From a virus, in IMG/VR virus record IMGVR_UViG_3300021962_000192, positions 1 to 45,954 of that record: a DNA stretch of 45,954 bases, one strand, 5' to 3'. Positions 5,071 through 42,395 of this stretch are shown here, one piece after another. The notes beneath the pieces were generated by a model. It was not told where the DNA came from and searched no databases. It saw only the letters and a program-made list of their open reading frames with translations. The translations under genes were made by a program, and so were the position numbers. Each line of letters begins with the position of its first letter. Positions within the stretch are counted from its first letter, which is position 1.

Positions 5071-5469
5071 ATGGAAGCAAAAATAATTCCAAGCGCAAAA
5101 GGACCAGTTGTCTTATTTGAAGACTTAGCCCTGCATATGACCGACACCCAAGGACTTACATACGCGGTAAATACTACACCTTTTCTTCTTCAAAACCTAG
5201 AAAAATCTTTGATTGACCATTTCGAATCAGTAACTAATTTTGTAAAAGAAAATTTAAAATCCAAAAATCCACTGCAATCAAATTTAGTTACTGACGCAAT
5301 AGGCGCAATGGATGATTTCTTTAAGTTTGCTTATAAGGACTATATTGGCTACCTAAGACTTCAAGCAATGGATAAAGAGCCGGATTTATCTGGCGAGAAG
5401 TTAGATGCCGCAGTTCGCAGAATTTGCCGAGACGACATCAATCATTTCTATGCGCAAAAAAAATCATGA
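5071..5469 (+). CDS. Hypothetical protein, first gene of oxygenase operon
   Basis: The predicted protein is mainly alpha-helical and has no recognised domain. Two in-frame starts exist: ATG 5062 and ATG 5071 (132 residues). I prefer 5071 because of the spacing from the -10 box at 5056-5061. The C-terminal region is charged (AAVRRICRDDINHFY). It overlaps the next gene through ATGA, which starts a run of four coupled genes. A role as partner or substrate of the downstream oxygenases is possible but unsupported. Confidence 0.6.
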   Translation: MEAKIIPSAKGPVVLFEDLALHMTDTQGLTYAVNTTPFLLQNLEKSLIDHFESVTNFVKENLKSKNPLQSNLVTDAIGAMDDFFKFAYKDYIGYLRLQAMDKEPDLSGEKLDAAVRRICRDDINHFYAQKKS

Positions 5470-6083
5470 GAAGAGAACCTTCCGACGTTAGATACGATAA
5501 GCCAGTAGACAATTGCGTACCACCGTCTGTAGTCGTCTCTGATGTTTTCACTCCAGATGAATGTCGTAAAATTATAGAACTTGGAAATTCCGAGAAACTA
5601 GACGCCGCAAAAGTTAGGGGTGGCGCTGTTATGACTCAAATCAGAAGTTCGGAGTTAAGGTTTATCGAGCCCGTAAATATGAATGAAGTCGGTTGGATTT
5701 TTGAAAGACTCAAAGAAATTATTGACAATGTAAATGACCGAATCTATGAGTATCAATTGCATTATTTTACCCCACCTCAATTTACTCATTACAAAGTTGA
5801 TGATTATTATGACTGGCATATGGACCTACTAATGGGTAAACCATGTGAGGCATTATTTATGAGGAAACTTTCAGCAACAGTATTTTTGTCAAATCCAGAA
5901 GATTTTACTGGAGGCGAATTAATGATAGGTCGTAATTCTGACGGCAGTCATGAAGAGATAATTGAAGCAAAGCAAGGAGCCATGGTTTTGTTTCCTTCAT
6001 TTATTTGGCATAAAGTCAATACGGTTAAATCAGGAGAGCGTTATTCGTTGGTTGTTTGGAGTGAAGGGGATAAATTCAGGTGA
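5466..6083 (+). CDS. Fe(II)/2-oxoglutarate oxygenase, prolyl 4-hydroxylase/PKHD type
   Basis: The start is ATG 5466, overlapping the preceding stop (ATGA). The 205-residue protein is a complete double-stranded beta-helix oxygenase. Iron ligands are His118-x-Asp120 (in YYDWHMD) and His182 (in SFIWHKV); Arg192 (in SGERYSLVVW) would bind 2-oxoglutarate. The conserved FTGGELMI and GAMVLFPS strands are typical of PKHD-type hydroxylases. Such enzymes hydroxylate prolyl, lysyl or other side chains using O2 and 2OG. The natural substrate is unknown; it is close to tail-fibre genes and in an operon with other oxygenase-like proteins. Confidence 0.9.
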   Translation: MRREPSDVRYDKPVDNCVPPSVVVSDVFTPDECRKIIELGNSEKLDAAKVRGGAVMTQIRSSELRFIEPVNMNEVGWIFERLKEIIDNVNDRIYEYQLHYFTPPQFTHYKVDDYYDWHMDLLMGKPCEALFMRKLSATVFLSNPEDFTGGELMIGRNSDGSHEEIIEAKQGAMVLFPSFIWHKVNTVKSGERYSLVVWSEGDKFR

Positions 6084-6865: not shown

Positions 6866-7386
6866 TTTTTCTTGAACGTTCAGAATTTATTGTTAAAAAT
6901 CTTCCCGAGATTGAAAAATCTTTAGAATTTGCTCGCTTTAAATTCAAGGATGTAATGGGGACAACCGAATATACAAAAGCCTACGGTATTTATAATCTCT
7001 TTGCCTTACTTCATTCAGATGCTCTTTTTTATCAAATATTTATCGATTTGCGCGAGCGAGTTAGAACTGTTTTAAAACTGGAGCCGAATCAGCCTCTCTG
7101 GATGCAAGCGTGGATGAACGCTGACAGACCAGAAGGAGTCTTAGATTGGCATGACCATATGTGGCCATGGCACGGGTATATATCTATTGACCCCAAAAAT
7201 ACGAACACAGTTTTTGAAGACAGAGTAGTTAAAAATGTTCCGGGTCAAATTTATTTTGGTGAAGGTCATAATAGACATAAAGTTCAAGTCCTGGAACCGT
7301 ATGAAGGTTTAAGAACAACAATTGGATTTGATGTAACCAACGTAGTTGGCGAAAGGACAAGATATGTCAGTTTTATCCCGTTCTAA
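6862..7386 (+). CDS. Probable Fe(II)/2OG-dependent oxygenase (divergent)
   Basis: The 174-residue protein overlaps its neighbours on both sides. A likely metal site is LDWHDHMWPWHGYI: His97-Asp-His99 (HxH, or Asp98 as ligand), with His139 in HNRHKVQV and Arg151 in GLRTTIGFDV. The order 'first His pair, GQIYFG strand, second His, R-TIGFD strand' follows the oxygenase jelly roll. The acidic ligand of the classical HxD triad is not in its usual place, so catalysis is less certain than for its neighbours. Confidence 0.6.
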   Translation: MIFLERSEFIVKNLPEIEKSLEFARFKFKDVMGTTEYTKAYGIYNLFALLHSDALFYQIFIDLRERVRTVLKLEPNQPLWMQAWMNADRPEGVLDWHDHMWPWHGYISIDPKNTNTVFEDRVVKNVPGQIYFGEGHNRHKVQVLEPYEGLRTTIGFDVTNVVGERTRYVSFIPF

Positions 7387-7984
7387 TTCCAAGGAAGAGC
7401 AATATACGCAAGGCGACCACATCGGCGTATGGGATAATTTTTTTACCCCCGAGCTGTGCAATAAATTTATTGCATTTTATGAATATCGCTCCAAGGTTGC
7501 GTTCAAACGAAACGACCATACAAAGCAAGACTCATCGGTGAATATTGGCACAGAAGAAGCAATGCGACAAATTATGGTCGATAGTTCAATGAGCGATGAT
7601 TTTCTGCCAGAATTTCTAGATAAATTTTGGGGAACTTGTTACCCAATGTACGTTGAGAAACACCCACATTTAACAAATGCAGTTTCTTCGCTTGTTATGT
7701 CAACTATAAAGATTCAAAAAACACTTCCTCAAGAGGGTTATCATGTTTGGCATTGCGAGCAAGCAACGATAGAAACTGGGCGCCGGATGGCGTTTATTAT
7801 TCTTTACTTGAACGATGTTCAATCTGGCGGCGAGACAGAGTTCCTATACCAATCAGCAAGAGTTGAGGTTTCTCAAGGGCGGTTAATTCTCTCTCCGGCT
7901 GCTTATACCCATATGCACCGTGGTAATCCGCCATTAAGCGGGCCAAAATATATTCTCACAGCGTGGCTTGAATTTGAAAAATAG
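7364..7984 (+). CDS. Fe(II)/2OG oxygenase, prolyl 4-hydroxylase-like with HxE motif
   Basis: The start is ATG 7364 (AAAGGA eight bases upstream), overlapping the previous gene by 23 bases; a TTG at 7346 is the alternative. The 206-residue protein carries His130-Cys-Glu132 (YHVWHCE) instead of HxD, the strand SGGETEFL, and the distal His in TYTHMHRG-like sequence (YTHMHRGNPP, His183/His185). Lys195 in GPKYILTAW probably replaces Arg as the 2OG ligand, as it does in prolyl 4-hydroxylases. HxE variants are active in some subfamilies. It ends the ATGA-coupled operon. Confidence 0.85.
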   Translation: MSVLSRSNSKEEQYTQGDHIGVWDNFFTPELCNKFIAFYEYRSKVAFKRNDHTKQDSSVNIGTEEAMRQIMVDSSMSDDFLPEFLDKFWGTCYPMYVEKHPHLTNAVSSLVMSTIKIQKTLPQEGYHVWHCEQATIETGRRMAFIILYLNDVQSGGETEFLYQSARVEVSQGRLILSPAAYTHMHRGNPPLSGPKYILTAWLEFEK

Positions 7985-8083
7985 TTAAACTATAAATTTT
8001 AAAAACCAGCTATAGAAACTATGTGCCCAAGCACAAATAGTGTGTGGCTGGCATGCCTATTTTATTCTTGCGCAAAAAATTAT

Positions 8084-11000
8084 ATGTTTAGGCAAAAACC
8101 GTTTGCGGCACTTTTTTGGCTTACGTGTTTTGTCTGTGCTCTCTTGAGCCTTGGCCTTCCGGCAAGAAACGCCAGTGCTACCGAGTTGTACTACCCATCT
8201 GGACCGCAACTCAATATAAGCAAGTCCACTGTCACCGATGGTGGGTGGTCACTTTGCTACTCGGGAACCTACGGTGCGACTGCTTCGCTAACCACAATTG
8301 AGTCCGACTGCGACGGCGAATACCTCATCCTTGCTGGTGGTCAAACTGGCTCAGACACTCTGATGCTTCTTGCTGCTGCCCCAAGGTCGGATGTGTTCAC
8401 AAATACGACAACAGCCCACCTATCTAACGGGTCGTACTGGTACTACGGACGCGACCATAATTCGTCAATCGGCTTTGCCCCAAATGCCACGATTCAGTTG
8501 AGCAGTGCAGACGTCTATAACACCTCTGACCAATACCGACTCTCCTGGCATACCAACTACTGCGGAGACCTAATGCTCTGCGGTGGGTGGCGTGTCGGTG
8601 CTGTCGTCGGTCTCAACTCAGGCGATTCATACACACGGTATGTGTATGAGTCTTCAGATGGTGCTTCGCCTACGACGACTACGACTACAACTACAACAAC
8701 TACAACAACTACAACAACTACAACTACAACAACTACAACTACAACAACTACAACTGTTCCAGCACCGACTTCCATTGAGGTGACCAACCTCTTGGATGAC
8801 GGCTCCGAGGGAAGTCTTCGCTGGGCGATTACCCAAGCGAATGGAGCCTCTGGTGGAGAAAATGACTCCATCACCTTCGCAGAAGGTCTTGCTGGAACCA
8901 TAACGCTCACATCAAACTTGCCAAATATCACCGACACCCTGACCATTGATTCCGATGACGCAATAACAATTGCTGGCAACTACCAGATGTACATATCAAC
9001 CGGAGTTACCGCAACGGTTAACGACATGGGCTTTAGCCAGTCATACATAACCAACGAGCGTGGAACCCTGTATGTGAACAGTTGCACCTTTACAAATCTT
9101 GGCAACTATGGGGTAGGCAATAAGAATGGTGCGACCCTCACCTACATAGATGGAACCACATTTAATGGTGGAACACGAGGAGTCTGGTCGGACTGGGGAA
9201 ATACGCCAAATCCGTTCACCACGGACGACTCTGCATACCAGAACCGAATCTACGTAACAGACTCAACGTTCCAAAATCTGTCAGTTGGAATAGGCGCGGA
9301 GCGTTCAGTATTTGTTTCTGGCTCGACATTTACCAATAACTCCACTCACATTAATGCGAGAGGAATAAATAAATACAGGATTACCAACAACACATTTAGT
9401 GGTGGAACCAATGGAATAATCACGTTCTCCAACATCCCGGCATGGGAGGGATTCTTTGCCAATAAATCGGTGGATGCAAACAATAGATACATCGCTGGAA
9501 ATACGTTCACCAATGTCTCCAACTATGCAATTTATTTGGACGACTACTACGGCAGTGTTCCGGACCAGCAGGGTGCAACGATTAGGGATAACACATGGGA
9601 CGAGACTGGTGTGTGGGTCAGTTGGAGGAATGCCAACGGAAGATACAACGAAACAGAAGTTGACGGTGGAGATTATCCGTATTATTCGTTGAGCAACACT
9701 TCCAGTGCTCCGCCGCCGACAACCACAACTACAACAACTACAACAACTACTACAACTACTACAACTACAACGACAAGTAGTACTACAACTACAACAGTTC
9801 CCTATCAGCCCGCTCCAAGTCCCAATGATTCTGGTCAATCCGGTAACGGTGGCGACTCACCGCCAACTGGTACCACAGAGCCACCATACATAGCCCCAGA
9901 ACCTGAAACAGAATCCACGGTAACGACGCTTCCAGAAGAAACATTGCCTGAAAACGAACAGCCAGTAGCGACCATTCCAGAAGAGCCGAAACCAACAGAA
10001 ACAACTTTACCCCCAGTAGAAGTAGAGCCCACAGAGCCTGAAACGGTAGAAGTAGATAATCCATCAGATAATTCTACTGACCTTCCAGAAGAATTCAACA
10101 ATTTGCCAGATGACGCTTCTGCCGAAGAAATACTGGAAATCATTACGGAAGTTGATTTCACGGAAATATCTGACGACCGGTTTGAAGCCGTGCTTGACAA
10201 AGTGTTTGAGGACATTTCAGACACAGAAAAAGTCACGGAAGTCCTTACTTCATTGCTGTCCGAAGAATTAGATAAAGAACAACTTGTATCTGTTATGGAA
10301 GCGGTATTTAGCGAAGAGGCATCTGTCGAGCAAATGGGTGCAGTTGTAGACGACCTTTTAAAAGCAGGCCTATCAGGAGAAGAATTGGCGGCAGTTTTTG
10401 ACGCTGTATTTGATGAAGACCTTTCAGACGAAGAAACAATTGAATTGGCTCAAGAGATTCTTAAGGGCGAACTTGACGCAGAAGAATTTGGCACTGTAAT
10501 AGACGCCATCTTTGACGAAGTAGTAACTGACGAAGTTTTGATTGAAACATTTACTGCTGTTTTAGAAACCGAACTTGACGCAGAAAAGTTTGAAGCAGTT
10601 GTTGATGTTCTCGAATCCGAAGTTATTTCCAAAAAACAGGTCGCTGAAGTAGTCACTTTGATTATCCAACAGGAAGGCGGAGTTAATGCCGAACAAGCAA
10701 CAGAACTTGCAACAAGCCCCAAAGTGTTGGCGAGCATTGACGGCGAACAAGCAACGGAGGTGTTTGATGCCGTGGTTGCGTCAGAGGTGTCGCCAGAGGA
10801 TGGCGCCGCAATCGTAGAAGCAGTTCAGGAAGCTCCAGTCGAAGTTAAAGAAGCATTCGAAGAAGAGATAAATGTGTTCGCTGGTGTATTTGACGACTAC
10901 GTAGCTATTGGGTCGACCATCGATGTGGGTTCAAGAAGGACTGTAATGGTTGCGAGTTTGGTCACAGTTGCCGCAGTCAGTATTGGCTTATCAGCTGGTG

Positions 11001-11359
11001 GTACTTCGCCTGCTCCAAATTCAAACCCAACAGGTGGTAATCCAAATAACGAAAGTCAATTTAACGCACGGAAAGAAGAGGAAAGTGAGGCTGCCGGAGA
11101 AATAGCTTGGGATGGTTTAGAATGGATTAAGTATTTGAGCATTTATAAGTACGTGAATGGAGAAAAAGTCTTGGACTGGAAAAAATTCTTTAAAAAGTTT
11201 ACTTACGGTATTTTTGGTTTAGGGTTTACCCTCGCCGGTTCAATCGTGATGTATTTTACGCTTTCTGGCTTTACCCAAAAAGTTGCACTATGGGCGACGG
11301 CCTTTGCCTTCTTGGGTGCGATGTGGCTTCATATGCAAGAGCCAGATTCTAATGAATGA
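8084..11359 (+). CDS. Giant secreted, membrane-anchored protein with poly-Thr linkers and beta-helix domain
   Basis: I start at ATG 8084 because the signal peptide then has a normal shape (MFRQKPFAALFWLTCFVCAL, cleavage near ARNASA); ATG 8021 would add 21 residues. The order is: signal peptide; a Cys-containing N-domain; a poly-Thr run (8672-8755); a right-handed parallel beta-helix (about 8770-9700, opening with VTNLLDDGSEGSLRWAITQA); a second Thr run (9718-9800); a Pro/Glu linker; then about ten acidic helical repeats of 25-30 residues (for example EELAAVFDAVFDEDLSDEE). Last come a transmembrane helix (VMVASLVTVAAVSIGLSAGG) and two more near the C-terminus. Poly-Thr linkers and the acidic repeat block resemble surface proteins of Acidimicrobiia. 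It may be a host-derived surface protein altering attachment or superinfection. Different composition from the neighbouring tail genes suggests transfer. Confidence 0.75.
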   Translation: MFRQKPFAALFWLTCFVCALLSLGLPARNASATELYYPSGPQLNISKSTVTDGGWSLCYSGTYGATASLTTIESDCDGEYLILAGGQTGSDTLMLLAAAPRSDVFTNTTTAHLSNGSYWYYGRDHNSSIGFAPNATIQLSSADVYNTSDQYRLSWHTNYCGDLMLCGGWRVGAVVGLNSGDSYTRYVYESSDGASPTTTTTTTTTTTTTTTTTTTTTTTTTTTTVPAPTSIEVTNLLDDGSEGSLRWAITQANGASGGENDSITFAEGLAGTITLTSNLPNITDTLTIDSDDAITIAGNYQMYISTGVTATVNDMGFSQSYITNERGTLYVNSCTFTNLGNYGVGNKNGATLTYIDGTTFNGGTRGVWSDWGNTPNPFTTDDSAYQNRIYVTDSTFQNLSVGIGAERSVFVSGSTFTNNSTHINARGINKYRITNNTFSGGTNGIITFSNIPAWEGFFANKSVDANNRYIAGNTFTNVSNYAIYLDDYYGSVPDQQGATIRDNTWDETGVWVSWRNANGRYNETEVDGGDYPYYSLSNTSSAPPPTTTTTTTTTTTTTTTTTTTSSTTTTTVPYQPAPSPNDSGQSGNGGDSPPTGTTEPPYIAPEPETESTVTTLPEETLPENEQPVATIPEEPKPTETTLPPVEVEPTEPETVEVDNPSDNSTDLPEEFNNLPDDASAEEILEIITEVDFTEISDDRFEAVLDKVFEDISDTEKVTEVLTSLLSEELDKEQLVSVMEAVFSEEASVEQMGAVVDDLLKAGLSGEELAAVFDAVFDEDLSDEETIELAQEILKGELDAEEFGTVIDAIFDEVVTDEVLIETFTAVLETELDAEKFEAVVDVLESEVISKKQVAEVVTLIIQQEGGVNAEQATELATSPKVLASIDGEQATEVFDAVVASEVSPEDGAAIVEAVQEAPVEVKEAFEEEINVFAGVFDDYVAIGSTIDVGSRRTVMVASLVTVAAVSIGLSAGGTSPAPNSNPTGGNPNNESQFNARKEEESEAAGEIAWDGLEWIKYLSIYKYVNGEKVLDWKKFFKKFTYGIFGLGFTLAGSIVMYFTLSGFTQKVALWATAFAFLGAMWLHMQEPDSNE
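8672..8755 (+). repeat. ACN microsatellite encoding poly-threonine (1)
   Basis: A run of nearly 30 Thr codons written with mixed ACT/ACA/ACG triplets. Being a multiple of three, length change would vary the linker without breaking the frame. A similar run of Thr codons occurs at 9718-9800. Confidence 0.8.
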
Positions 11360-28064: not shown

Positions 28065-28964
28065 ATGATTTTAAAAAACGGAACGTACGATAAACATACG
28101 ATAATCTACGATACCGATGGCCCAATATCGGTATTTACTAATGTAAAAATTAAAAACAATCCTCACAGCAACGACTTTTTCCCTCTTTGCGGGACCTTTG
28201 TACCAATAACCTGCACACCGCACTATTTTCATTTTTTGAAAGAGTATTACGGATTTTATATTTATTTTAAAAATAAATATGATGCGGATGCGAAGTATCT
28301 TAAAATAGAAAATAGTAGCTATTTTTACCCTGCGTATCAAAATATGGCTCGCGTATGTGGATACTGTTATGACCAGATTTCTGATGGGTTTACATTTAAT
28401 GATTTTTCTAACGCTAATTTAGAAATAGAAAAACTTATTATTTTATTCGATTCTCAAAAATGCATTACTGGTTCTTTGTACAGTCAACCTGACTACTTAA
28501 AAACACCTGGAATAAATACGGCGCTGAGAAATAGCGTTCTTTCAAAAATAAAAAAAACTACGCATAGCAAAAAATTATACCTATCGCGCAAAATAGTTTC
28601 AGAGCATTTACCTAATTTTCCTGTTGATGGCTCTAACGAGCGCCTTCAAAACTGGAAAAACGAACAAATGCGCTTGCGATACGTAGAGCCCACGTTAGAA
28701 GACGGAGTAGAGCAAAAATATTATGATGAAGGTTATGAAATTGTCCAGTTATCCGGTATGGATATTTTAGAACAGGCATCTATGTTTTATAATGCTGAAA
28801 AAATTGTCGGTCCAATCGGTACAGCTTTTTATAATGGTATATTTTCAAGCGAGCAAACTGTTTTTGATGCTTTAATGCTTAATCCAAATTATTTTTATGC
28901 TTTTGACGTAGACATAAAAACAGTTCTTCCCAACGCAGTATTTAGGTACAAATATGATTATTAA
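28065..28964 (+). CDS. GT61-like glycosyltransferase (DUF563 type)
   Basis: This is a 299-residue protein. The N-terminal part has HYFHFLKEYYGFYIYFK, comparable to the 'HWxxDxLPRL' region of GT61 enzymes. The central part has KLYLSRK, and the C-terminal part has YEIVQLSGMDILEQASMFYN followed by KIVGPIGTAFYNGIF, the conserved 'xS..eQv.lf..A..ivG..GagL.n' block of the family. GT61 members transfer pentoses or GlcNAc to glycans or proteins. It overlaps the following oxygenase gene by 11 bases, so the two are likely to act together. The sequence is more AT-rich than the tail genes. Confidence 0.72.
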   Translation: MILKNGTYDKHTIIYDTDGPISVFTNVKIKNNPHSNDFFPLCGTFVPITCTPHYFHFLKEYYGFYIYFKNKYDADAKYLKIENSSYFYPAYQNMARVCGYCYDQISDGFTFNDFSNANLEIEKLIILFDSQKCITGSLYSQPDYLKTPGINTALRNSVLSKIKKTTHSKKLYLSRKIVSEHLPNFPVDGSNERLQNWKNEQMRLRYVEPTLEDGVEQKYYDEGYEIVQLSGMDILEQASMFYNAEKIVGPIGTAFYNGIFSSEQTVFDALMLNPNYFYAFDVDIKTVLPNAVFRYKYDY

Positions 28965-30276
28965 AGAAGAGGCTTACCCATTACCTGATTTAGGTGTTGA
29001 GCCGCATCTGGTAAAAAATTTTTTCCCCGAAGATTTATTTTTGAAAGTAAAAAAACAAATTCAAGATACTGGCATGGGCACCGAAAAGGGAACATACTAT
29101 CCAATGATGGGTAGATGGGGTTCTGGAATCACCCCAAGTAAAGACGTGGAAGACTACGTTCTAAACGCAGTAAGAAAAATTTTTAATAATGACACCCTTG
29201 TCCCCGCTTATCACTACACAGTAATGTATCAAAGGAAAGATGGATGTATCCCCAATCTCTGGGAGCATTTAGACCAAAATGGTTCTCAAATATCAATAAA
29301 TATAGCCATAGAAAATACGGCAAATTGGCCGTTAATAGTTGACGGTCAAGAATTTTACCAAAACCCAAATGACGCTGTTATTTTTTGCGGACAACAGCAC
29401 TCACATGCAAGACCTCCATACCCAACAAACGATGAAAATTTGTGCACAACTCAACTATTCATGCATTTCAGCACCCCAAATCATTGGATTCAAAATCAAG
29501 CTTTCGGGACCATTCACGATTATGGGCTAGATGGTGATATAAGGTTTTTTAACAAAAATAGATACTTGCCCCTCCCGGACCCTCCGTTTAACCAACCAAT
29601 AGGAAAAGACCAAGACTATTCCGGGGTTTTGCATTATTACGACTTGATTGTCGGTGATTTTTTTGACACCGAATCAGAGTTGAGTGAATTAAATATTTTC
29701 TCTGTTCAAAAACTAGCTCCAGGTATTTTGCTTTATAAAACATCCAAAAAGTCAGCCCGCATTATAAAAGGTTTAGTTCAAAATGCGATATTTAAACAAT
29801 GGCGTCAAGCAGAAGTTGTTTTTAGCAACAATCAAACAGGAGTTGATTATAGTGCCCGGAACTGTTTCAACTATTTTTTGAACGAAAAGCAAGATGATTG
29901 CCATCCGCAAGACCCAATCGTTAGGGCAAAAAAATCTTTAGAATTAGGGATAAATGCAGTTGTTGAAAATTACAGAAAATTACATCATCTAACTCCTTTA
30001 AATTCTGACTCAACGGTACTTTTGAGATATGAGGAAGGCGGGATGTTTCATAATCATTTTGATGTAGCCCCGTCATTCCCTCGCGTTGTTTCTGTATCTA
30101 TGTTCTTGAACGAAGACTTTACTGGTGGCGAATTAGAATTCAAAGAATTCGGTCTTAAGGTAAAACCGGAATCAGGCGATATTTTGGTTTTCCCGTCATC
30201 TTTTCCTTACATGCATGAAGTACGCCCAGTAACTATGGGAATCAGATATTCAGTGGTTAAATGGTATAGTTTTTGA
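28954..30276 (+). CDS. Two-domain Fe(II)/2OG oxygenase, prolyl 4-hydroxylase-like
   Basis: The 440-residue protein carries two oxygenase folds. The C-terminal one is complete: His368-x-Asp370 (HNHFD), FTGGELEF, GDILVFPSS, His421 (YMHEVRP) and Arg431 (MGIRYSVVKW), typical of prolyl 4-hydroxylases. The N-terminal one has His105-x-Asp107 (LWEHLDQ) and a distal His149/His151 (QQHSHARPPY) but no clear Arg, so it may be a divergent catalytic or substrate-binding copy. It overlaps the glycosyltransferase gene. Hydroxylation followed by glycosylation of the nearby TPPV tail protein is a reasonable hypothesis. Confidence 0.85.
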   Translation: MIIKEEAYPLPDLGVEPHLVKNFFPEDLFLKVKKQIQDTGMGTEKGTYYPMMGRWGSGITPSKDVEDYVLNAVRKIFNNDTLVPAYHYTVMYQRKDGCIPNLWEHLDQNGSQISINIAIENTANWPLIVDGQEFYQNPNDAVIFCGQQHSHARPPYPTNDENLCTTQLFMHFSTPNHWIQNQAFGTIHDYGLDGDIRFFNKNRYLPLPDPPFNQPIGKDQDYSGVLHYYDLIVGDFFDTESELSELNIFSVQKLAPGILLYKTSKKSARIIKGLVQNAIFKQWRQAEVVFSNNQTGVDYSARNCFNYFLNEKQDDCHPQDPIVRAKKSLELGINAVVENYRKLHHLTPLNSDSTVLLRYEEGGMFHNHFDVAPSFPRVVSVSMFLNEDFTGGELEFKEFGLKVKPESGDILVFPSSFPYMHEVRPVTMGIRYSVVKWYSF

Positions 30277-33556: not shown

Positions 33557-34903
33557 ATGTCCGAGAATATCCACGTCCAGTCAGAAATTGTAGACATCAA
33601 TAGCCTTAAGTCCTACCCTAAAAATCCAAGGCGCGGTGATGTTGAAGCCATTGCGCAGTCTCTTGAAAAAAATGGACAATATAAGCCCATCGTTGTTAAT
33701 AAGAGAAACAATACAATCCTCACTGGAAATCACACTTGGCGCGCAGCGCGCAGTCTTGGTTGGACAGAAATAGCGGTTTCTTTCGTCGATGTTGATGAAT
33801 TAGGTGCTCAAAAAATTGTTCTTGCAGATAACAGAACTTCGGATATGTCGTCCTATGATGACTTTAAACTCCTAGAACTTCTTGAAACCCTCCCTGACTT
33901 TGAAGGGACTGGATTTAGCCAAGTAGATGTAGACCAGCTTCAGTCAATCCTAAAATCAACAGACTTATTTGATTCGCCCAATAAAACCAGGTCTGGTCAG
34001 ATTGGTGAGAGTGTCAGGGTTTGTGTTGGGACCTATCGAATTATGGTCGATGATGATGCTTATAAGAATTGGGCCGACAGTTTAATTGCTTCTTACAAAA
34101 CTGATGATGCGGTTATAGAGGAGATAAAAAATCGCTTATCTTTGTCTGATGTAAAAGCTGTACCGCCGGCATCCAGAACCAAGAACCCTAAGAAAAATAA
34201 ATCAACTGCGACAAAACAATCGATGCATTCAGTCATCGCCTCAACAGAAAACGTAAACATTAACAGCGTCTTTCCGTACCCTATGAACGCTAGGCAAGGC
34301 GATATCGGGATGATTGCTGATTCCCTAAAAGCCAATGGCCAGTTTCGGCCAATCGTTGTCAATAAGAGAGACAACTCTATTTTGGTTGGTAATCACACTT
34401 GGAAAGCGGCTAAAGCGCTTGGCTGGAAAGAAATCGGCGTTACTTTTGTTGACGTAGATGACGAGGCTGCTGCCAGAATTGTTTTGGTGGATAATAAATT
34501 ATCCGACTTGGGCTCCTATGACCACATAGCTTTAGCTGAAATACTTCAATCGATGCCTTCATTTGATGGTACCGGCTACACCGGAGATGACCTAGATGAA
34601 TTAATGAAAGAAGTCGCTGGTTGGGGCATTAAGACTAAACCAACAAAGGAAGTGGAAAACAACAAACCAAGAAATGTGACTGCGATTGTTGGTAAATGGG
34701 AAATCAAAATGGAGCAACAATATTTTGATGATTGGGAAGAGAAAGCCTTTGTCAATTTTGGCTACTCCTATGATGAGGTTTGCGGTGGAATAGTGGAAAT
34801 GCTCAAGATTCCAGTTGACGCATGGGTCTCGACAAAACAAAGAGAGTCAAAAAGAAAGAGCCCGCGTCGGCTAAAAAATGAAACCGGTACTGACGCCGAT
34901 TGA
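33557..34903 (+). CDS. Tandem ParB-like nuclease-domain protein
   Basis: The 448-residue protein contains two ParB/Srx-like domains in a row (about 14-135 and 233-355). Each has the core pattern: AIAQSLEKNGQYKPIVVNKR, ILTGNHTWRAARSLGW, FVDVDELGAQKIVLADNR in the first; MIADSLKANGQFRPIVVNKR, ILVGNHTWKAAKALGW, FVDVDDEAAARIVLVDNK in the second. The halves are clearly duplicated. GNHT replaces the usual GxxR of partition ParB, which in ParB binds CTP/phosphates. Such stand-alone domains in phages accompany methyltransferases. It overlaps the next gene by 26 bases. Confidence 0.82.
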   Translation: MSENIHVQSEIVDINSLKSYPKNPRRGDVEAIAQSLEKNGQYKPIVVNKRNNTILTGNHTWRAARSLGWTEIAVSFVDVDELGAQKIVLADNRTSDMSSYDDFKLLELLETLPDFEGTGFSQVDVDQLQSILKSTDLFDSPNKTRSGQIGESVRVCVGTYRIMVDDDAYKNWADSLIASYKTDDAVIEEIKNRLSLSDVKAVPPASRTKNPKKNKSTATKQSMHSVIASTENVNINSVFPYPMNARQGDIGMIADSLKANGQFRPIVVNKRDNSILVGNHTWKAAKALGWKEIGVTFVDVDDEAAARIVLVDNKLSDLGSYDHIALAEILQSMPSFDGTGYTGDDLDELMKEVAGWGIKTKPTKEVENNKPRNVTAIVGKWEIKMEQQYFDDWEEKAFVNFGYSYDEVCGGIVEMLKIPVDAWVSTKQRESKRKSPRRLKNETGTDAD

Positions 34904-36425
34904 CCAACTCCATCCTTCGGCGTACAACCCGCGTAAGGCTGACGCCAATCGTTTGGATTTGGTCGAACTATCGCTTTCGAAATTTGGGTGGCTGCTGCCC
35001 ATCTATGCGGATTCGCAGGGCGAAATCCTTTCCGGACATCAACGTCATCTTGTTGCGCAGCGTATGGGTGCCAAGATGGTCCCGGTCGTGAGAACAAATC
35101 CACTTCAAGTGGAGCGGCGTATGGGTATCAACGTTTTGTACAACCGGTCAACTAACGACCTTTATAAAAACAAATCGACTACTGAATTGCGTGATGAACT
35201 GATTGGTGCTCAGCCATTGCTTGAGCGCATCCATGCACTTCCGTCTATCCCGGTCGATTCCGATGCTTGGTATCCAATCATGAGACAAAAACCTGTCTCT
35301 GTCTTGCGCCTTGTAAAATTAAATGAGTTTTGGCCGGAACAGCATGCTGTGGTTATGGCGGGGAAGCTAAAGGCAAATGGCCTACCTCAAATGCCGATTA
35401 TCTGCACTCCTTCCTATCGAATCGTGAATGGCCGCGCACGAATGACGTTTGCAGCTCGTGACAATATCGACGTCGTGCAGTCTGTAACAGTTCCCGAAGA
35501 CCAAGCCGACCTTGTAGAGATAATGCTCAATCTTTTGACTATGGACTTCGACATTCAAGAACGCTACGCCGACCTTTTGCGCCACAATAGTTTTCGTCGC
35601 AAAAATCAGCTTTCAAAAATTTTGACCCCAACATTTCTGGAAGATTTTTTACGTCATTTTATTAACTCAGGTAATCGTGTAGGCGCATTCCAGCTCGACA
35701 ATCCAAAGCATGTCGAAATGTGGAAGGAATACTACGGTACTCATGTCATCGATTTTGGAGCTGGTCTTTGCGATAAGACCCAGATTCTTCGAAACATGGG
35801 TGTTGACGCGGTCGAGTTTGAGCCCTTTTTGCTGTCCGCGGACAACGAGACAATCGATACAGACGCCGCTAGAGCTTTAGTGCATCGGTTTTTAATGCGC
35901 GTAGCAGATGGAACCGAGTGGGATTCAATTTTTATCGCATCAGTATTTAACAGTATTCCGTTTTTGCAGGACCGGCTTCATGTCGTATCAATTGTTAGTG
36001 CATTGTGCTCCGAGCGCACAAAGGTTCATGCCGCCGTTATTGGAACCGAGTCAGACCGCTGGTACAACCACACAAGAGGCGATTTAAGAAAAAGCCACGA
36101 CACCTCAAGCGGCGGCTTTGCCCTTGATTATGAGCCAAGAACTATCATTTCCGATATTGCGTTAAAACCAAAGGTGCAAAAATACCACACGGAAATCGAA
36201 TTTAAGGTTCTTCTTGAAAATGGATTTAAGCATGTCGATACTTTCCTAACTACCAAAAACGGCTTAGTTCAGGCAGTTGCCAAAACTCCAAAGCCTATAG
36301 ATATCGACGCTTTACGAGCAGCAATCGAATTTGAGTTTAATGTCCCGCATCCCAACAATATGAGACTCGATATGGTTGAGCCAGCAAAAAAAGCTTTTTC
36401 TGAAAGATTGAAAATTAAATTATGA
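34878..36425 (+). CDS. ParB-like/methyltransferase fusion protein
   Basis: In this 515-residue protein, the N-terminus is a ParB-like domain (LHPSAYNPRK, GEILSGHQRHLVAQRMG, residues about 5-75). A second, weaker one follows at 140-205 (QMPIICTPSYRIVNGRARMT). The C-terminal part has a Rossmann methyltransferase motif I, VIDFGAGLCDK (290-300), with acidic VEFEPF after strand 2. No NPPY/DPPY amino-methyltransferase motif or PC motif is visible, so its chemistry and target are unclear. It is coupled to the tandem ParB gene before and to the CmoA-like gene after (ATGA overlap). Confidence 0.78.
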   Translation: MKPVLTPIDQLHPSAYNPRKADANRLDLVELSLSKFGWLLPIYADSQGEILSGHQRHLVAQRMGAKMVPVVRTNPLQVERRMGINVLYNRSTNDLYKNKSTTELRDELIGAQPLLERIHALPSIPVDSDAWYPIMRQKPVSVLRLVKLNEFWPEQHAVVMAGKLKANGLPQMPIICTPSYRIVNGRARMTFAARDNIDVVQSVTVPEDQADLVEIMLNLLTMDFDIQERYADLLRHNSFRRKNQLSKILTPTFLEDFLRHFINSGNRVGAFQLDNPKHVEMWKEYYGTHVIDFGAGLCDKTQILRNMGVDAVEFEPFLLSADNETIDTDAARALVHRFLMRVADGTEWDSIFIASVFNSIPFLQDRLHVVSIVSALCSERTKVHAAVIGTESDRWYNHTRGDLRKSHDTSSGGFALDYEPRTIISDIALKPKVQKYHTEIEFKVLLENGFKHVDTFLTTKNGLVQAVAKTPKPIDIDALRAAIEFEFNVPHPNNMRLDMVEPAKKAFSERLKIKL

Positions 36426-38202: not shown

Positions 38203-38450
38203 AGGGTGATGACGCTAAATACTGGCAGCAAATTTATAATAGCGCCGTAGTTATCACCCAGTCTTTACAAAGCTACGGAGTTGACCCACAAGAATGCCCT
38301 TTGTTTTCTGACGACGAAATTCACCTTATCTGTGTGTCAAATAAAGTCTTTAGTTTCGATGAAAATTTAATTTTTAAACTTGCTTCTGCAATGTTGCAAG
38401 AAAGACACCACTGGTCATATAGTAATGGCACGACGAAAGGAATTCAATGA
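38199..38450 (+). CDS. Coding frame without a standard start codon
   Basis: An open frame runs from 38175 (after TAG 38172-38174) to TGA 38448-38450. It reads KGDDAKYWQQIYNSAVVITQ, then QECPLFSDDEIHLICVSN and QERHHWSYSNG. It overlaps the WhiB ATG through ATGA, as real genes here do. Yet it has no ATG, GTG or TTG before about residue 35. The natural start position is GTA 38199. Options are a non-standard start, a -1 slip from the upstream gene at CCTTTTC (38191-38197), or a recent start-codon mutation (GTG to GTA). Product about 83 residues, function unknown. Confidence 0.5.
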   Translation, partial: VKGDDAKYWQQIYNSAVVITQSLQSYGVDPQECPLFSDDEIHLICVSNKVFSFDENLIFKLASAMLQERHHWSYSNGTTKGIQ

Positions 38451-38956
38451 TTAAAGGCGAACCGCTCGATTCAGTTGCGACAACAAAACGAGATAGATTC
38501 TTACAGCAAAACAATTACTTAACCGAAACAGTAAGCCCGCCGCTTGAAGGAGCAGCCTGTAAAGGTAAACCAGCGAACTACTGGTTCCCCAAACTTGTCG
38601 ACGATTCAAAAGCCAGAGATTACAAAGACCGAGATAAGGGAATCTCGATTTGTAGAGAATGCCCAGTCAGGAAAGACTGCCTCTTGTACTCCTTGGAGTA
38701 CGAGCCTTTTGGAACTTGGGGTGGTTTCACCGAAATCCAAAGAATGGTTTTGGGTCTCTTTTGGAAGATAAAGCCAAAGCGGACCTCACACGTAAAGGCA
38801 GCCTTTTGGCATTACCGCGATATACACGACTATATTAATAATACGGAAGACCAAAAATTTATTTCAAGGATAGCTCGTGAAGAAAAATACCCAGACCCAG
38901 AATTTGTTGAACCAACTTACAAAAGGTATTACGCCACGCGCCGCATCAAAAATTAA
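38447..38956 (+). CDS. WhiB-family iron-sulfur transcription regulator
   Basis: The 169-residue protein contains the WhiB signature: Cys38 (GAACKGK), Cys69, Cys72 and Cys78 (ICRECPVRKDC) to hold a [4Fe-4S] cluster, then the WhiB turn GTWGGFTE. WhiB proteins occur only in Actinobacteria and their phages and act with the housekeeping sigma factor. The C-terminal extension of about 70 charged residues after the WhiB domain is longer than in most family members. It overlaps the previous frame through ATGA. Confidence 0.9.
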   Translation: MIKGEPLDSVATTKRDRFLQQNNYLTETVSPPLEGAACKGKPANYWFPKLVDDSKARDYKDRDKGISICRECPVRKDCLLYSLEYEPFGTWGGFTEIQRMVLGLFWKIKPKRTSHVKAAFWHYRDIHDYINNTEDQKFISRIAREEKYPDPEFVEPTYKRYYATRRIKN

Positions 38957-38965
38957 GGGCAGCTA

Positions 38966-39166
38966 ATGGGCAAGAAAAAAGGAAAAGGCGGCTCCAAGTC
39001 GAGTACAGGCAGGACCCGAACAAATCCTTTGACTGGCCAAATCGAAACAATTTCCGGAACTAAAGCAGGCAAGAAAAGACACCGCACTTCAATGGGCGAC
39101 CCTCTACGAACTCACGACCTTCATGGTCCTGTCGGAAAACCAAAAAAGAAAAAAGAAGAGTTTTAA
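38966..39166 (+). CDS. Small basic protein
   Basis: The 66-residue, strongly basic protein starts MGKKKGKGGSKSSTGRTRTN and ends GKPKKKKEEF. Probably disordered and nucleic-acid binding. It converges with, and overlaps by four bases, the minus-strand oxygenase gene. Confidence 0.55.
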   Translation: MGKKKGKGGSKSSTGRTRTNPLTGQIETISGTKAGKKRHRTSMGDPLRTHDLHGPVGKPKKKKEEF

Positions 39167-39939
39167 TTTTTCCCGAATTGGGTAATTACAACATCACCGG
39201 ATAGGTGTTGTCTTGGAATGGCATCACTACTAATTAAGATTCTCTGGAGCCATCTATCTGTGCCGTCGTAACGAGCCACGAATGGTTTGCGCCCATGAAT
39301 TGTATTCCGGTTGTCAATAACCAATAAATCCCCGTCTTCCAAGACAATCTCTTTTATCGACGCCCGCACAGCTTCTGAGAATTTATCTAGTGCTGCTTGT
39401 GCTTCACTGTCGGCCCCGCGCATCAATGCTTCGTCATAGACCATAGACCACCGCTTGTCTCGACAAATCAGTACAGAAGTAAACAGTTCACAATCTGGTT
39501 GCCCCTCTAATCTGAAACTGTCGTCAAGGGAGGTTATAAATACCGGTTGTTGTAAAATCTTGATTGTTTCTTGGTCGAGCTTCCCTAATATGTCCTCAAG
39601 CTCGGCATAGGTAGTAATTGCGTTCTTGTCGCCGCGCAAACAATAAAGCATCAAGTGTGTTGGCTTGTAGGGATGGAATGCGGTCTCGGTGTGTAGCTGC
39701 AGTTCAGTCTTTGAGGATGTAGATATTTGTTTAAGTTCCGTTTTTTGAATCGGGATAATGTTTTGAATCAGTCGCCCGTTCTGTTCTTGTTTGTACCCAA
39801 CTACCCTGCCTAAAGTCCCCCCGAATTTAAGCAACTTATCCCGAAGAGAAAATATCTCGGGTATCTCAGAATTTAGGTCTAATGGGGTAGGCGGAATAAC
39901 CTCCCCACCAAAAAAATTTTTTACGAGATTGACAGTCAT
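39163..39939 (-). CDS. VioC/AsnO/clavaminate synthase-like amino-acid oxygenase
   Basis: The 258-residue protein has the clavaminate-synthase-type 2OG site: His83-x-Glu85 in LHTETAFHPY (family 'xHTEDAFHPYR'), the adjacent LMLYCLRGD strand, distal His215 in DNRNTIHGRKPFVARYDGTD, and Arg229 in DRWLQR, 14 residues after the His as in CAS. VioC, OrfP, AsnO and CAS hydroxylate free Arg, Asn or related amino acids at C3. The protein is about 70-100 residues shorter than these, mainly at the N-terminus. It is paired with another oxygenase on the minus strand, apart from the plus-strand operons. Confidence 0.82.
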   Translation of the reverse strand: MTVNLVKNFFGGEVIPPTPLDLNSEIPEIFSLRDKLLKFGGTLGRVVGYKQEQNGRLIQNIIPIQKTELKQISTSSKTELQLHTETAFHPYKPTHLMLYCLRGDKNAITTYAELEDILGKLDQETIKILQQPVFITSLDDSFRLEGQPDCELFTSVLICRDKRWSMVYDEALMRGADSEAQAALDKFSEAVRASIKEIVLEDGDLLVIDNRNTIHGRKPFVARYDGTDRWLQRILISSDAIPRQHLSGDVVITQFGKN

Positions 39940-39953
39940 AGGTATTTGACATT

Positions 39954-40562
39954 TTACCTATATGGCTGTCCGTGCGCCCAAGCAACCAAGCAGTAACGAA
40001 CGCCACTTGTAATTGGCTTGACCTCGTGCAATGTCCATGAAGGCCAAATACTGGCAACCCCCGCTTCCCGACTTATCTCAACTTCATCGGGCCCCGCATG
40101 AATAACCACGTCCCCGCCCTCATAGCTTTCAGACTTGCTCAACTGGACGCTCATGGAAAGTTTCCGATTTATCCCCGCCCCACTAGACCAATCGGTATGC
40201 CGCGCATATTTCCCTCCCTGCCGGTATTCGAGCATCCGGATTGAAGGAATCTCTTCATAGGAGAGCCCAATGAAGTTACCCCGATTAAAAGCCTCGTAGA
40301 GCCTTCCAGTTACGTTCAGACCGTCGGAAAAGGTAATCCCTCGTAGGTCAGCCAAATATTCGGTACAGACCCTTATATCGCCTCCTGACGACTTATCTGG
40401 CCCGTGAACCATCCCTTTTTTAGATATCCCGTAGGAAAGGCAGTAGTCAATGATTTGTTGGCACTCAGCCTCCGAGAAGACCCTAAGCCATGAAAATAAG
40501 GAGTTGTTCTCAGCTTTATTCATACCAGTCCTAAATGTGCCGAAATCCGCGCTTAAATCCAT
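39954..40562 (-). CDS. PKHD-type Fe(II)/2OG hydroxylase
   Basis: The 202-residue protein is canonical: His122-x-Asp124 in GGKYARHTDWSS, strand EGGDVVIH, distal His179 in SWTLHEVKPITSGVRY and Arg189. The N-terminal FSWLRVFSEAECQQIIDYC is the family's usual opening. A ribosome binding site AAAGG lies six bases before the start. With the VioC-like gene 14 bases downstream it forms a two-gene oxygenase operon, the third oxygenase site in the window. Confidence 0.9.
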   Translation of the reverse strand: MDLSADFGTFRTGMNKAENNSLFSWLRVFSEAECQQIIDYCLSYGISKKGMVHGPDKSSGGDIRVCTEYLADLRGITFSDGLNVTGRLYEAFNRGNFIGLSYEEIPSIRMLEYRQGGKYARHTDWSSGAGINRKLSMSVQLSKSESYEGGDVVIHAGPDEVEISREAGVASIWPSWTLHEVKPITSGVRYCLVAWAHGQPYR

Positions 40563-40617: not shown

Positions 40618-41157
40618 ATGCCTACCTCCGCCCTCAAACAACAGAGAATCCCACAGTGGCTAAAAGAATACCTGTTTGTATTACAATGCGAAATGAAACT
40701 TAATCACTGGAAGATTGCTTTCGAAAAATACCCATGTCCCGAATCTTCTCTAGCCGAGATAGACATAGCCCCGGCACAACACTACGCAACTATCTCTCTA
40801 TCCCCTCATTGGCGTAAATGGAGTAAGTCTGAATTGCGCGCAACACTCACCCATGAACTCATGCACTGCCATCTTAATCCTCTAAACGAAATCGCTCTAG
40901 AGTACATGCCTAACGATAAAAGTCTAGAAGCAAAGCGTATCGCTCTAGATTATGTAAACGAAAGAACAACCGACAGCTTATCAGAACTCCTCTGTGAGTA
41001 CTTAACACTCCCAGGCCATGTCAGTCATGAATACAACCGAACTGTGGATAACCTTGTGATGATTAATGGTAAGAAAGCTGCCAAGAAAGTCTCAAAGAAT
41101 AAAAAGACGACAAGAAAAAAGTCCAATAAGCGCAAGAAGTCGGTAGCAAAGCGGTAG
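40618..41157 (+). CDS. SprT-like zinc metallopeptidase
   Basis: The 179-residue protein has the zinc motif LTHELMHCHLNP (HExxH). Tryptophan-rich sequence before it (LKEYLFVLQCEMKLNHWKIA) fits the SprT-like fold used by DNA-protein crosslink proteases. The C-terminal 30 residues are almost all Lys, Ser, Thr and Arg, probably a DNA-binding tail; its end is written over a tandem repeat. A second HExxH protein is encoded at 41790-42395. Confidence 0.75.
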   Translation: MPTSALKQQRIPQWLKEYLFVLQCEMKLNHWKIAFEKYPCPESSLAEIDIAPAQHYATISLSPHWRKWSKSELRATLTHELMHCHLNPLNEIALEYMPNDKSLEAKRIALDYVNERTTDSLSELLCEYLTLPGHVSHEYNRTVDNLVMINGKKAAKKVSKNKKTTRKKSNKRKKSVAKR

Positions 41158-41451: not shown

Positions 41452-41793
41452 TTATTTATCGGTACCCCACCTGGCTTCGGCACAAGCAGCGTTGCGTCGA
41501 GCAATTTTTTTCAGCTCAGCCTTCTTGAGTACTTCACTACGCTTGCGGACTGCTTCCATCCCCATAGGTGTAATAAACCAACCATTCTGATTCTTAGTTA
41601 GGTAGCCTTGTTTCAATCTTTTATTAAATATCGAGATGGATTTATCTAAAGCAATCGCCCCAAGCTGGAACTTGACATACTTGTATGGGTCAATACCATT
41701 TTTATTGGATATGGCGTAATAAAGAACCACCCATTCGTGGGGGATTTTCTTTTGCAATTTTGCTTGGCCTGGGTATTGGCGGGGTTTTTTCAC
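41452..41793 (-). CDS. Probable winged-helix DNA-binding protein
   Basis: The 113-residue basic protein overlaps the upstream metallopeptidase gene by four bases (ATGA), which supports its reality. The part AIALDKSISIFNKRLKQGYL followed by NQNGWFITPMGMEAVRKR looks like a winged helix with a beta wing. Possible regulator of the minus-strand pair. Confidence 0.55.
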   Translation of the reverse strand: MKKPRQYPGQAKLQKKIPHEWVVLYYAISNKNGIDPYKYVKFQLGAIALDKSISIFNKRLKQGYLTKNQNGWFITPMGMEAVRKRSEVLKKAELKKIARRNAACAEARWGTDK

Positions 41794-42395
41794 TGATTTC
41801 TACTTTCTGAATCCTTAATTCCATTCAATCTATGCTTCAACATTTCTTTTTGCTCCGGCGTTATCGGTCCCGACCAAGGCGAATGAGCTTTTCCGTACTT
41901 ACAGTTGGCTTTCTTCATGCTTTGCTTAAGCTTTCGCTCTGTTTCGCGGCCCAGAATGATGCGCGTGAGGTACAAATAGGTCTTACAGAACTCCCTTCCA
42001 TGGCTCTCGACGTTGTCGGCGGTCAGTATATGGGCCAATTCGTGCAAAATTGTCTGTTTATTTCGGTAGCGGCGCGGAAAGGTGACCAAATTAGTGTGGT
42101 ATACGCCGTTTGGGACCATGAATACATACGGGAACCTGCTTCCGGGCCCCTTCCGGATACGAAATTCTTCTTCGCCGCTCATTAGACGGACTGCTTTGGG
42201 ATATTTTTTCGCAACGTGGCGGTTAGATAATACCGCGTGAATGAATTTGACCATTTTTTCCCAGTCCTTGAACTCTTCTTTGTACTTTCCAAAGCAAAAA
42301 TATTCCGCCGCGTACAGTTTGCTGCGCTGGCGGTCTCGAGGGCGCGGGTTTTCCTTGAAGCCCGGAAAGTTTTGGTGCAGATGTTCGAGTGTCAT
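41790..42395 (-). CDS. Zinc metallopeptidase, TIGR04338-like
   Basis: The 201-residue protein has RDRQRSKLYAAEYF near the N-terminus and TILHELAHILT...SHGREFCKTYL: HExxH followed by a distal His in HGREF. Both features match the mycobacterial/actinophage 'putative metallohydrolase' family (TIGR04338). Basic overall, with a Lys-rich C-terminus. Substrate unknown. It points to an actinobacterial host. Confidence 0.78.
   Translation of the reverse strand: MTLEHLHQNFPGFKENPRPRDRQRSKLYAAEYFCFGKYKEEFKDWEKMVKFIHAVLSNRHVAKKYPKAVRLMSGEEEFRIRKGPGSRFPYVFMVPNGVYHTNLVTFPRRYRNKQTILHELAHILTADNVESHGREFCKTYLYLTRIILGRETERKLKQSMKKANCKYGKAHSPWSGPITPEQKEMLKHRLNGIKDSESRNQ

What the first reader, a model, noticed from the sequence alone, without database searches (positions are those of the whole stretch)
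39163..40562. VioC/AsnO-like amino-acid hydroxylase paired with a PKHD hydroxylase on the minus strand
The HxE motif LHTETAFHPY, the IHGRKPFVARYDGTDRW block and the 14-residue His-Arg spacing match clavaminate synthase-like enzymes that hydroxylate free Arg or Asn in antibiotic pathways. A phage version is unusual. It may hydroxylate an amino acid within a phage protein, or alter host amino-acid pools. It is not near any peptide synthetase.
Basis: partly seen in the sequence, partly recalled or inferred. Interest (0 to 1): 0.73.

Follow-up and report, generated by a model that had tools for sequence, protein, structure and literature searches.

The report
Actinophage lysine-hydroxylase-like enzyme
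A virus of actinobacteria carries a shortened enzyme of a kind known from antibiotic-making bacteria that adds a hydroxyl group to a free amino acid, most likely lysine, and hundreds of uncultured virus contigs carry the same gene with an unchanged active site, although what the virus gains is unknown.

Summary
The 258-aa minus-strand ORF at 39163-39939 is a genuine clavaminate-synthase-like (CSL) Fe(II)/2-oxoglutarate oxygenase, not a TauD/gamma-butyrobetaine enzyme. Its closest solved relative in sequence and predicted fold is KDO1, an L-lysine 3-hydroxylase (Z 31.0, 253 of 258 residues; gamma-butyrobetaine hydroxylase 18.8). Every side chain that binds lysine, iron or 2-oxoglutarate in KDO1 is present here and in all 70 distinct homologues examined (69 viral, one from a chlamydial MAG). 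The viral proteins form one clade (support 100/98), lack about 95 N-terminal residues of bacterial relatives, and are under purifying selection (median dN/dS 0.08). At least 264 IMG/VR contigs carry a relative, against one of 50,697 deposited phage records. WhiB genes in 24 of 31 records point to actinobacterial hosts. No peptide synthetase accompanies the gene. The adjacent PKHD gene is real but ordinary, and the pairing is not conserved: the complete phage DSL-LC01 has the CSL gene and no PKHD. Chemistry is well supported by homology. The exact substrate is inferred, and the biological role is speculative.

The parts
39163..39939 (-). CSL-family Fe(II)/2OG oxygenase, 258 aa, predicted free L-lysine (basic amino acid) 3-hydroxylase
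39685..39693 (-). proximal iron ligands H83-T-E85 (KDO1 H178, E180)
39784..39786 (-). E52, equivalent to KDO1 E147 (position P2, alpha-amine binding)
   Evidence: PMC6224419
39721..39723 (-). S73, equivalent to KDO1 S168 (P6, substrate carboxylate)
   Evidence: PMC6224419
39517..39525 (-). lid D139-D-S141, equivalent to KDO1 D234/S236 (P12, substrate side-chain amine)
   Evidence: PMC6224419
39433..39435 (-). D169, equivalent to KDO1 D268 (P15, substrate side-chain amine)
   Evidence: PMC6224419
39295..39297 (-). H215, distal iron ligand (KDO1 H314)
39241..39255 (-). R229 (2OG, KDO1 R328) and R233 (substrate carboxylate, KDO1 R332) in RWLQR
   Evidence: PMC6224419
39954..40562 (-). PKHD-type (PF13640) 2OG-Fe(II) oxygenase, 202 aa, upstream in the same two-gene unit; a common phage protein, not a conserved partner
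38447..38956 (+). WhiB-like regulator; host-lineage marker (Actinomycetota)

Best explanation
The gene encodes a compact CSL-family Fe(II)/2-oxoglutarate oxygenase that binds a free L-amino acid with a positively charged side chain, most likely L-lysine, and hydroxylates its beta carbon (C3), turning O2 and 2-oxoglutarate into CO2 and succinate. E52 and R233 (with S73) hold the alpha-amine and alpha-carboxylate. D139 (on the lid) and D169 hold the side-chain amine. H83, E85 and H215 hold iron, and R229 and T109 hold 2-oxoglutarate. It belongs to a viral clade found mostly in phages of Actinomycetota and acts as an auxiliary metabolic (moron) gene on the infected host's amino-acid pool, without a peptide synthetase and without needing the PKHD neighbour. 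Shown: family, intact catalytic set, invariant pocket, clade, purifying selection, WhiB-bearing genomes. Inferred: lysine as the substrate and C3 as the site. Speculative: the benefit, either making 3-hydroxylysine for a surface or glycan product or shifting the lysine/2-oxoglutarate balance.
For: PDB best hit KDO1 by single sequence (4.5e-34) and by profile (9.9e-48). AlphaFold model pLDDT 89.4, pTM 0.87; the KDO1-lysine complex is the top structural match, Z 31.0, rmsd 1.8 A, 253 residues. The KDO1 contacts named in PMC6224419 (E147, S168, H178, E180, T204, D234, S236, D268, H314, R328, R332) are identical in 70 of 70 distinct homologues of 230 aa or more. The combination E-S-D-S-F-D separates KDO1, the viral set, L037 and one Streptomyces protein from Arg-type (Q at P2, His or Tyr after the lid Ser) and AsnO-like (E-K-N-P/S) enzymes. 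Viral clade support 100/98. Median dN/dS 0.082 over 84 pairs. WhiB in 24 of 31 records; NRPS condensation domain in 0 of 31.
Against: No viral member has been assayed. KDO1 is the only characterised enzyme here with this exact pocket, so lysine rests on one reference. VioC (30.4) is structurally tied with KDO1 (31.0), and NCBIfam ranks GntD (enduracididine) first. About 95 N-terminal residues present in the characterised CSLs are missing, possibly part of the dimer interface, so activity cannot simply be assumed. Gene neighbourhoods offer no pathway that would use hydroxylysine. P16 (A171 here) varies across the clade (A/S/T/F/D), so the pocket floor is not uniform. The alignment used to read the residues was sequence-based, not structure-guided.
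Confidence: 0.6

Rival explanations
1. Same chemistry, different basic amino acid: the viral enzymes hydroxylate L-arginine, L-ornithine or an arginine derivative, as VioC, OrfP or GntD do.
For: NCBIfam GntD 7.5e-56 and VioC 1.4e-46 are the best family models; VioC structural Z 30.4 is within 1 of KDO1; the D-x-S lid and P15 Asp are shared with VioC and OrfP.
Against: VioC, OrfP and GntD have Gln at P2, His after the lid Ser and lids of 46-53 residues; the viral proteins have Glu, Phe and mostly 30-31. The Asp that contacts guanidinium in VioC (P16) is Ala here and variable in the clade, although OrfP lacks it too.
Confidence: 0.22
2. The enzyme supplies a hydroxylated amino acid to a phage-encoded glycan or surface-decoration pathway.
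For: In one lineage (28 loci) the gene is directly upstream, often by a few bases, of glycosyltransferase and methyltransferase genes. DSL-LC01 has a methyltransferase and a mannosyltransferase divergently next to it. Hydroxylysine does occur in some bacterial peptidoglycans (PMC11555704).
Against: That lineage is one clade, so it counts as about one event. Other lineages sit among replication genes (PolA-RecA, RNR-ThyX, MazG). The window's own GT61 is 10 kb away.
Confidence: 0.15
3. It modifies lysine within a phage or host protein.
For: PKHD oxygenases and glycosyltransferases, typical of protein modification, are frequent in these phages; loss of the N-terminal part might open the active site.
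Against: The Arg and Glu that bind the free carboxylate and amine are invariant, and the CSL enzymes described in PMC6224419 act on free amino acids and their derivatives.
Confidence: 0.07
4. CSL and PKHD are a dedicated two-enzyme system.
For: Adjacent, co-directional, 14 nt apart, against the strand of the neighbouring genes.
Against: No PKHD of this kind within the fetched flanks of any other CSL locus; DSL-LC01 (complete) has CSL and no PF13640; 18 relatives of this PKHD have no CSL within 4 kb.
Confidence: 0.04

Closest known systems
KDO1, L-lysine 3-hydroxylase of Catenulispora acidiphila (PDB 6F2A; PMC6224419)
   Same: Fold (Z 31.0, rmsd 1.8 A over 253 residues), iron and 2OG ligands, all lysine contacts, similar lid length (30 against 34)
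   Different: 31-33% identity; lacks the first ~95 residues; P16 is Ala rather than Asp; viral, not cellular; activity untested
VioC, OrfP and GntD (arginine-type beta-hydroxylases)
   Same: CSL family, acidic side-chain pocket, RxxxR motif
   Different: Gln at P2, His after the lid Ser, longer lid, part of antibiotic or toxin pathways
AsnO and AsnO-like plasmid enzymes
   Same: CSL family, Glu at P2
   Different: AsnO has Pro at P12 and Asn at P6 (PMC6224419); the viral enzymes have Asp and Ser
Actinomycetia phage DSL-LC01 'TauD/TfdA family dioxygenase' WJZ48424.1 (OQ999401)
   Same: Viral CSL homologue, 45% identity, WhiB-bearing phage with a tryptophan halogenase
   Different: No PKHD in the genome; beside a VanY peptidase and a glycosyl/methyltransferase pair
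PKHD-type hydroxylases of cyanophages (phrog_61) and PiuC
   Same: The 202-aa neighbour belongs here
   Different: A different oxygenase family; no functional link to the CSL enzyme shown

Membership tests
Clavaminate synthase-like (CSL) oxygenases | HxE...H iron triad | tested here: met
   H83/E85/H215; identical in 70 of 70
Clavaminate synthase-like (CSL) oxygenases | Arg P18 for 2OG and Arg P19 for substrate carboxylate | tested here: met
   R229 and R233; 70 of 70
Clavaminate synthase-like (CSL) oxygenases | Closer to CSL than to TauD/gamma-butyrobetaine enzymes in sequence and fold | tested here: met
Clavaminate synthase-like (CSL) oxygenases | N-terminal part of about 95 residues / conserved dimer interface | tested here: inconclusive
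   The residues are absent (alignment starts at KDO1 residue 96; the open frame is only 264 aa), but which interface helices they hold and the oligomeric state were not tested
KDO1-type lysine 3-hydroxylase | Substrate contacts E147, S168, D234, S236, D268, R332 | tested here: met
KDO1-type lysine 3-hydroxylase | Turnover of free L-lysine at C3 | not testable with these tools
   needs an enzyme assay
VioC-type arginine beta-hydroxylase | NCBIfam TIGR03946 curated cut-off (418.6 bits) | tested here: not met
   159.1 bits
GntD enduracididine beta-hydroxylase | NCBIfam NF041363 curated cut-off (345 bits) | tested here: not met
   189.8 bits
AsnO-type asparagine oxygenase | No Asp at P12 (PPSD pocket), Asn at P6 | tested here: not met
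   D139 and S73 in the viral proteins
TauD / gamma-butyrobetaine oxygenases | Best match among family models | tested here: not met
   carnitine_bodg 22.6 bits against a cut-off of 414.75
PKHD-type hydroxylase (neighbour) | PF13640 gathering score | tested here: met
   52.6 bits against 27

The most novel reading that the evidence does not exclude
Actinophages share a virus-specific, N-terminally reduced free-lysine beta-hydroxylase that makes 3-hydroxylysine in infected cells as a building block (for envelope, glycan or protein) or to divert lysine, a phage-borne metabolic reaction for which I found no earlier description.
Probability: 0.3. Interest if true: 0.72.

Novelty: new variant of a known kind. 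Interest (0 to 1): 0.55.

Why it matters
Enzymes of this family that hydroxylate free amino acids are best known from antibiotic and toxin pathways, where downstream enzymes use the product. A large viral clade that keeps the whole amino-acid pocket unchanged but has no such pathway implies a use for a hydroxylated basic amino acid during infection. Phage genes labelled 'TauD' may hide this activity. The clade also gives compact (about 260 aa) candidates for biocatalytic lysine hydroxylation and a direct, simple assay.

Tried and rejected
(1) TauD/gamma-butyrobetaine identity: rejected. (2) Mis-called start as the cause of the short N-terminus: rejected, since the open frame is 264 aa and nearly all viral relatives are short too. 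(3) Missing N-terminus supplied by a small upstream ORF (c17, c41, c96, c38, c16): hhalign found no similarity. (4) Peptide synthetase partner: no condensation domain in 31 records. (5) Phage lysyl-tRNA synthetase that would load hydroxylysine: 0 of 22, with positive controls. (6) DNA hypermodification kinase HMUDK: 0 of 22, but no control rang, so uninformative. (7) Conserved halogenase partner: 3 of 31 records. (8) Cellular relatives by the viral motif: one Rhabdochlamydiaceae MAG contig; the scan sees only the motifs used, so it does not show that CSLs are rare in bacteria (116 plasmid records match). (9) Promoter and terminator scan: no more sites than in shuffles. (10) No CSL-named viral model among the best BFVD matches, which are TauD/gamma-butyrobetaine types at 10-18% identity. 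(11) Paper searches found no report of a phage CSL enzyme in the open-access library; this is not proof of absence. (14) The S. clavuligerus plasmid locus L133 gave no usable ORF in the script and was left out of the tree.

Full report
WHAT IS THERE. Two minus-strand ORFs, 39954-40562 (202 aa) and 39163-39939 (258 aa), lie 14 nt apart between plus-strand genes for a WhiB-like protein and an SprT-like metalloprotease. The window is an IMG/VR virus record of 45,954 bases, classed linear.

FAMILY OF THE 258-AA PROTEIN. Pfam gives only the broad TauD family (5.2e-14). The PDB sequence search ranks KDO1, an L-lysine 3-hydroxylase, first (4.5e-34), then OrfP, VioC, CmnC, NapI, AsnO and clavaminate synthase. 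A profile of 17 viral relatives again puts KDO1 first (9.9e-48). NCBIfam puts GntD (7.5e-56), VioC (1.4e-46) and clavaminate synthase (1.9e-37) far above gamma-butyrobetaine dioxygenase (4.6e-5); none reaches its curated cut-off. The AlphaFold model (pLDDT 89.4, pTM 0.87) matches the KDO1-lysine complex best (Z 31.0, 1.8 A, 253 residues), VioC 30.4, AsnO 29.7, KDO5 26.3, human gamma-butyrobetaine hydroxylase 18.8. KDO1 and VioC are tied by Z, so the fold proves the family, not the substrate.

SUBSTRATE. The KDO1 structures (PMC6224419) name the residues that touch lysine (E180, R332, D234, D268, S168, S236), 2OG (R328, R332, T204) and iron (H178, E180, H314); the paper also says that P2, which binds the alpha-amine, is Glu in KDO1, and the alignment places it at E147. 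All are identical in the window protein (E85, R233, D139, D169, S73, S141, E52; R229, T109; H83, H215) and in all 70 distinct homologues of at least 230 aa (this set is 69 viral proteins, the window's included, and the chlamydial MAG protein L037). In a comparison with plasmid-borne CSLs, the set E(P2)-S(P6)-D(P12)-S-F-D(P15) occurs in the viral proteins, KDO1, L037 and one Streptomyces protein, whereas VioC, OrfP, GntD and two related Streptomyces proteins have Gln at P2 and His or Tyr after the lid Ser, and AsnO-like proteins have E-K-N and no P12 Asp. According to PMC6224419 the two Asp (P12, P15) form the pocket for positively charged side chains, and P19 Arg binds the free carboxylate. 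I therefore predict a free basic amino acid, lysine first. This is inference: one reference enzyme carries the exact pattern.

A VIRAL CLADE. One scan found 34 viral loci and a profile-based scan 264 contigs (80 kept); both are lower bounds. Among 50,697 phage records only DSL-LC01, a lake metagenome-assembled actinophage, has one (45% identity). In 84,980 bacterial and archaeal genomes the viral motifs found a single relative, a full-length 350-aa protein in a Rhabdochlamydiaceae MAG; this scan is motif-bound. Thirty-five viral representatives form one clade against bacterial CSLs (100/98). They carry 48-63 residues (two exceptions, 78 and 94) before P2, against 113-141 in full-length bacterial relatives (80 in one short Streptomyces protein), and the model aligns from KDO1 residue 96 onward. 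Purifying selection is strong (median dN/dS 0.082, 84 pairs). WhiB genes occur in 24 of 31 records tested.

CONTEXT AND ROLE. Neighbourhoods differ between lineages: PolA-RecA-Cas4-like; RNR-ThyX-MazG; primase-WhiB; and, in one clade of 28 loci, directly upstream of glycosyltransferase and methyltransferase genes. No NRPS condensation domain (0 of 31) and no class II tRNA synthetase of the LysRS type (0 of 22) were found. So the gene looks like a moron/auxiliary gene that uses host lysine; what follows is unknown. A surface-glycan or envelope use, or a shift of lysine and 2-oxoglutarate, are guesses.

THE PKHD NEIGHBOUR. It is a PF13640 oxygenase with relatives in 297 phage records, mostly cyanophages, and in 18 IMG/VR loci without a CSL gene within 4 kb. 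PF13640 occurs in 17 of 31 CSL-bearing records, up to 11 per genome, but not in the complete DSL-LC01. The pairing is local.

VERDICT. A new, virus-specific, shortened variant of a known enzyme family, with a firm family assignment, a reasoned substrate prediction and an open role.

Noticed in passing
window 151-1650 (-): Flavin-dependent tryptophan halogenase (PF04820, 7.5e-90). DSL-LC01 and the record of L043 also have one; 3 of 31 CSL-bearing records in all.
   Followed up: partly
window 5424-6083, 7346-7984, 28954-30276 (+), 39954-40562 (-): Four PF13640 (PKHD-type) oxygenases in one 46-kb record; related records of 134-174 kb carry up to 11.
   Followed up: partly
window 28065-30276 (+): A GT61 glycosyltransferase gene overlaps by 11 nt a 440-aa gene with a C-terminal PKHD domain, which suggests a hydroxylation-glycosylation pair.
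   Followed up: no
window 33557-36425 (+): Two successive genes with ParB-like domains, the first with two ParB-like halves, the second fused to a large part of unknown function (phrog_5475).
   Followed up: no
L043:8824-12771, window 8021-11359: Very long proteins clustered by similarity; the one of L043 has a legume-lectin-type domain and a threonine-rich linker.
   Followed up: no
L037:4617-5669: Rhabdochlamydiaceae MAG contig encodes a full-length KDO1-pocket CSL just downstream of a gene that looks like a threonine dehydratase.
   Followed up: partly
plasmid collection: 40 Klebsiella plasmid records hold a CSL-like match to this protein; not examined.
   Followed up: no
window 40618-41157 (+) and 41790-42395 (-): Two genes with weak SprT-like metalloprotease matches (below Pfam's cut-off) lie just beyond the PKHD gene.
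   Followed up: no
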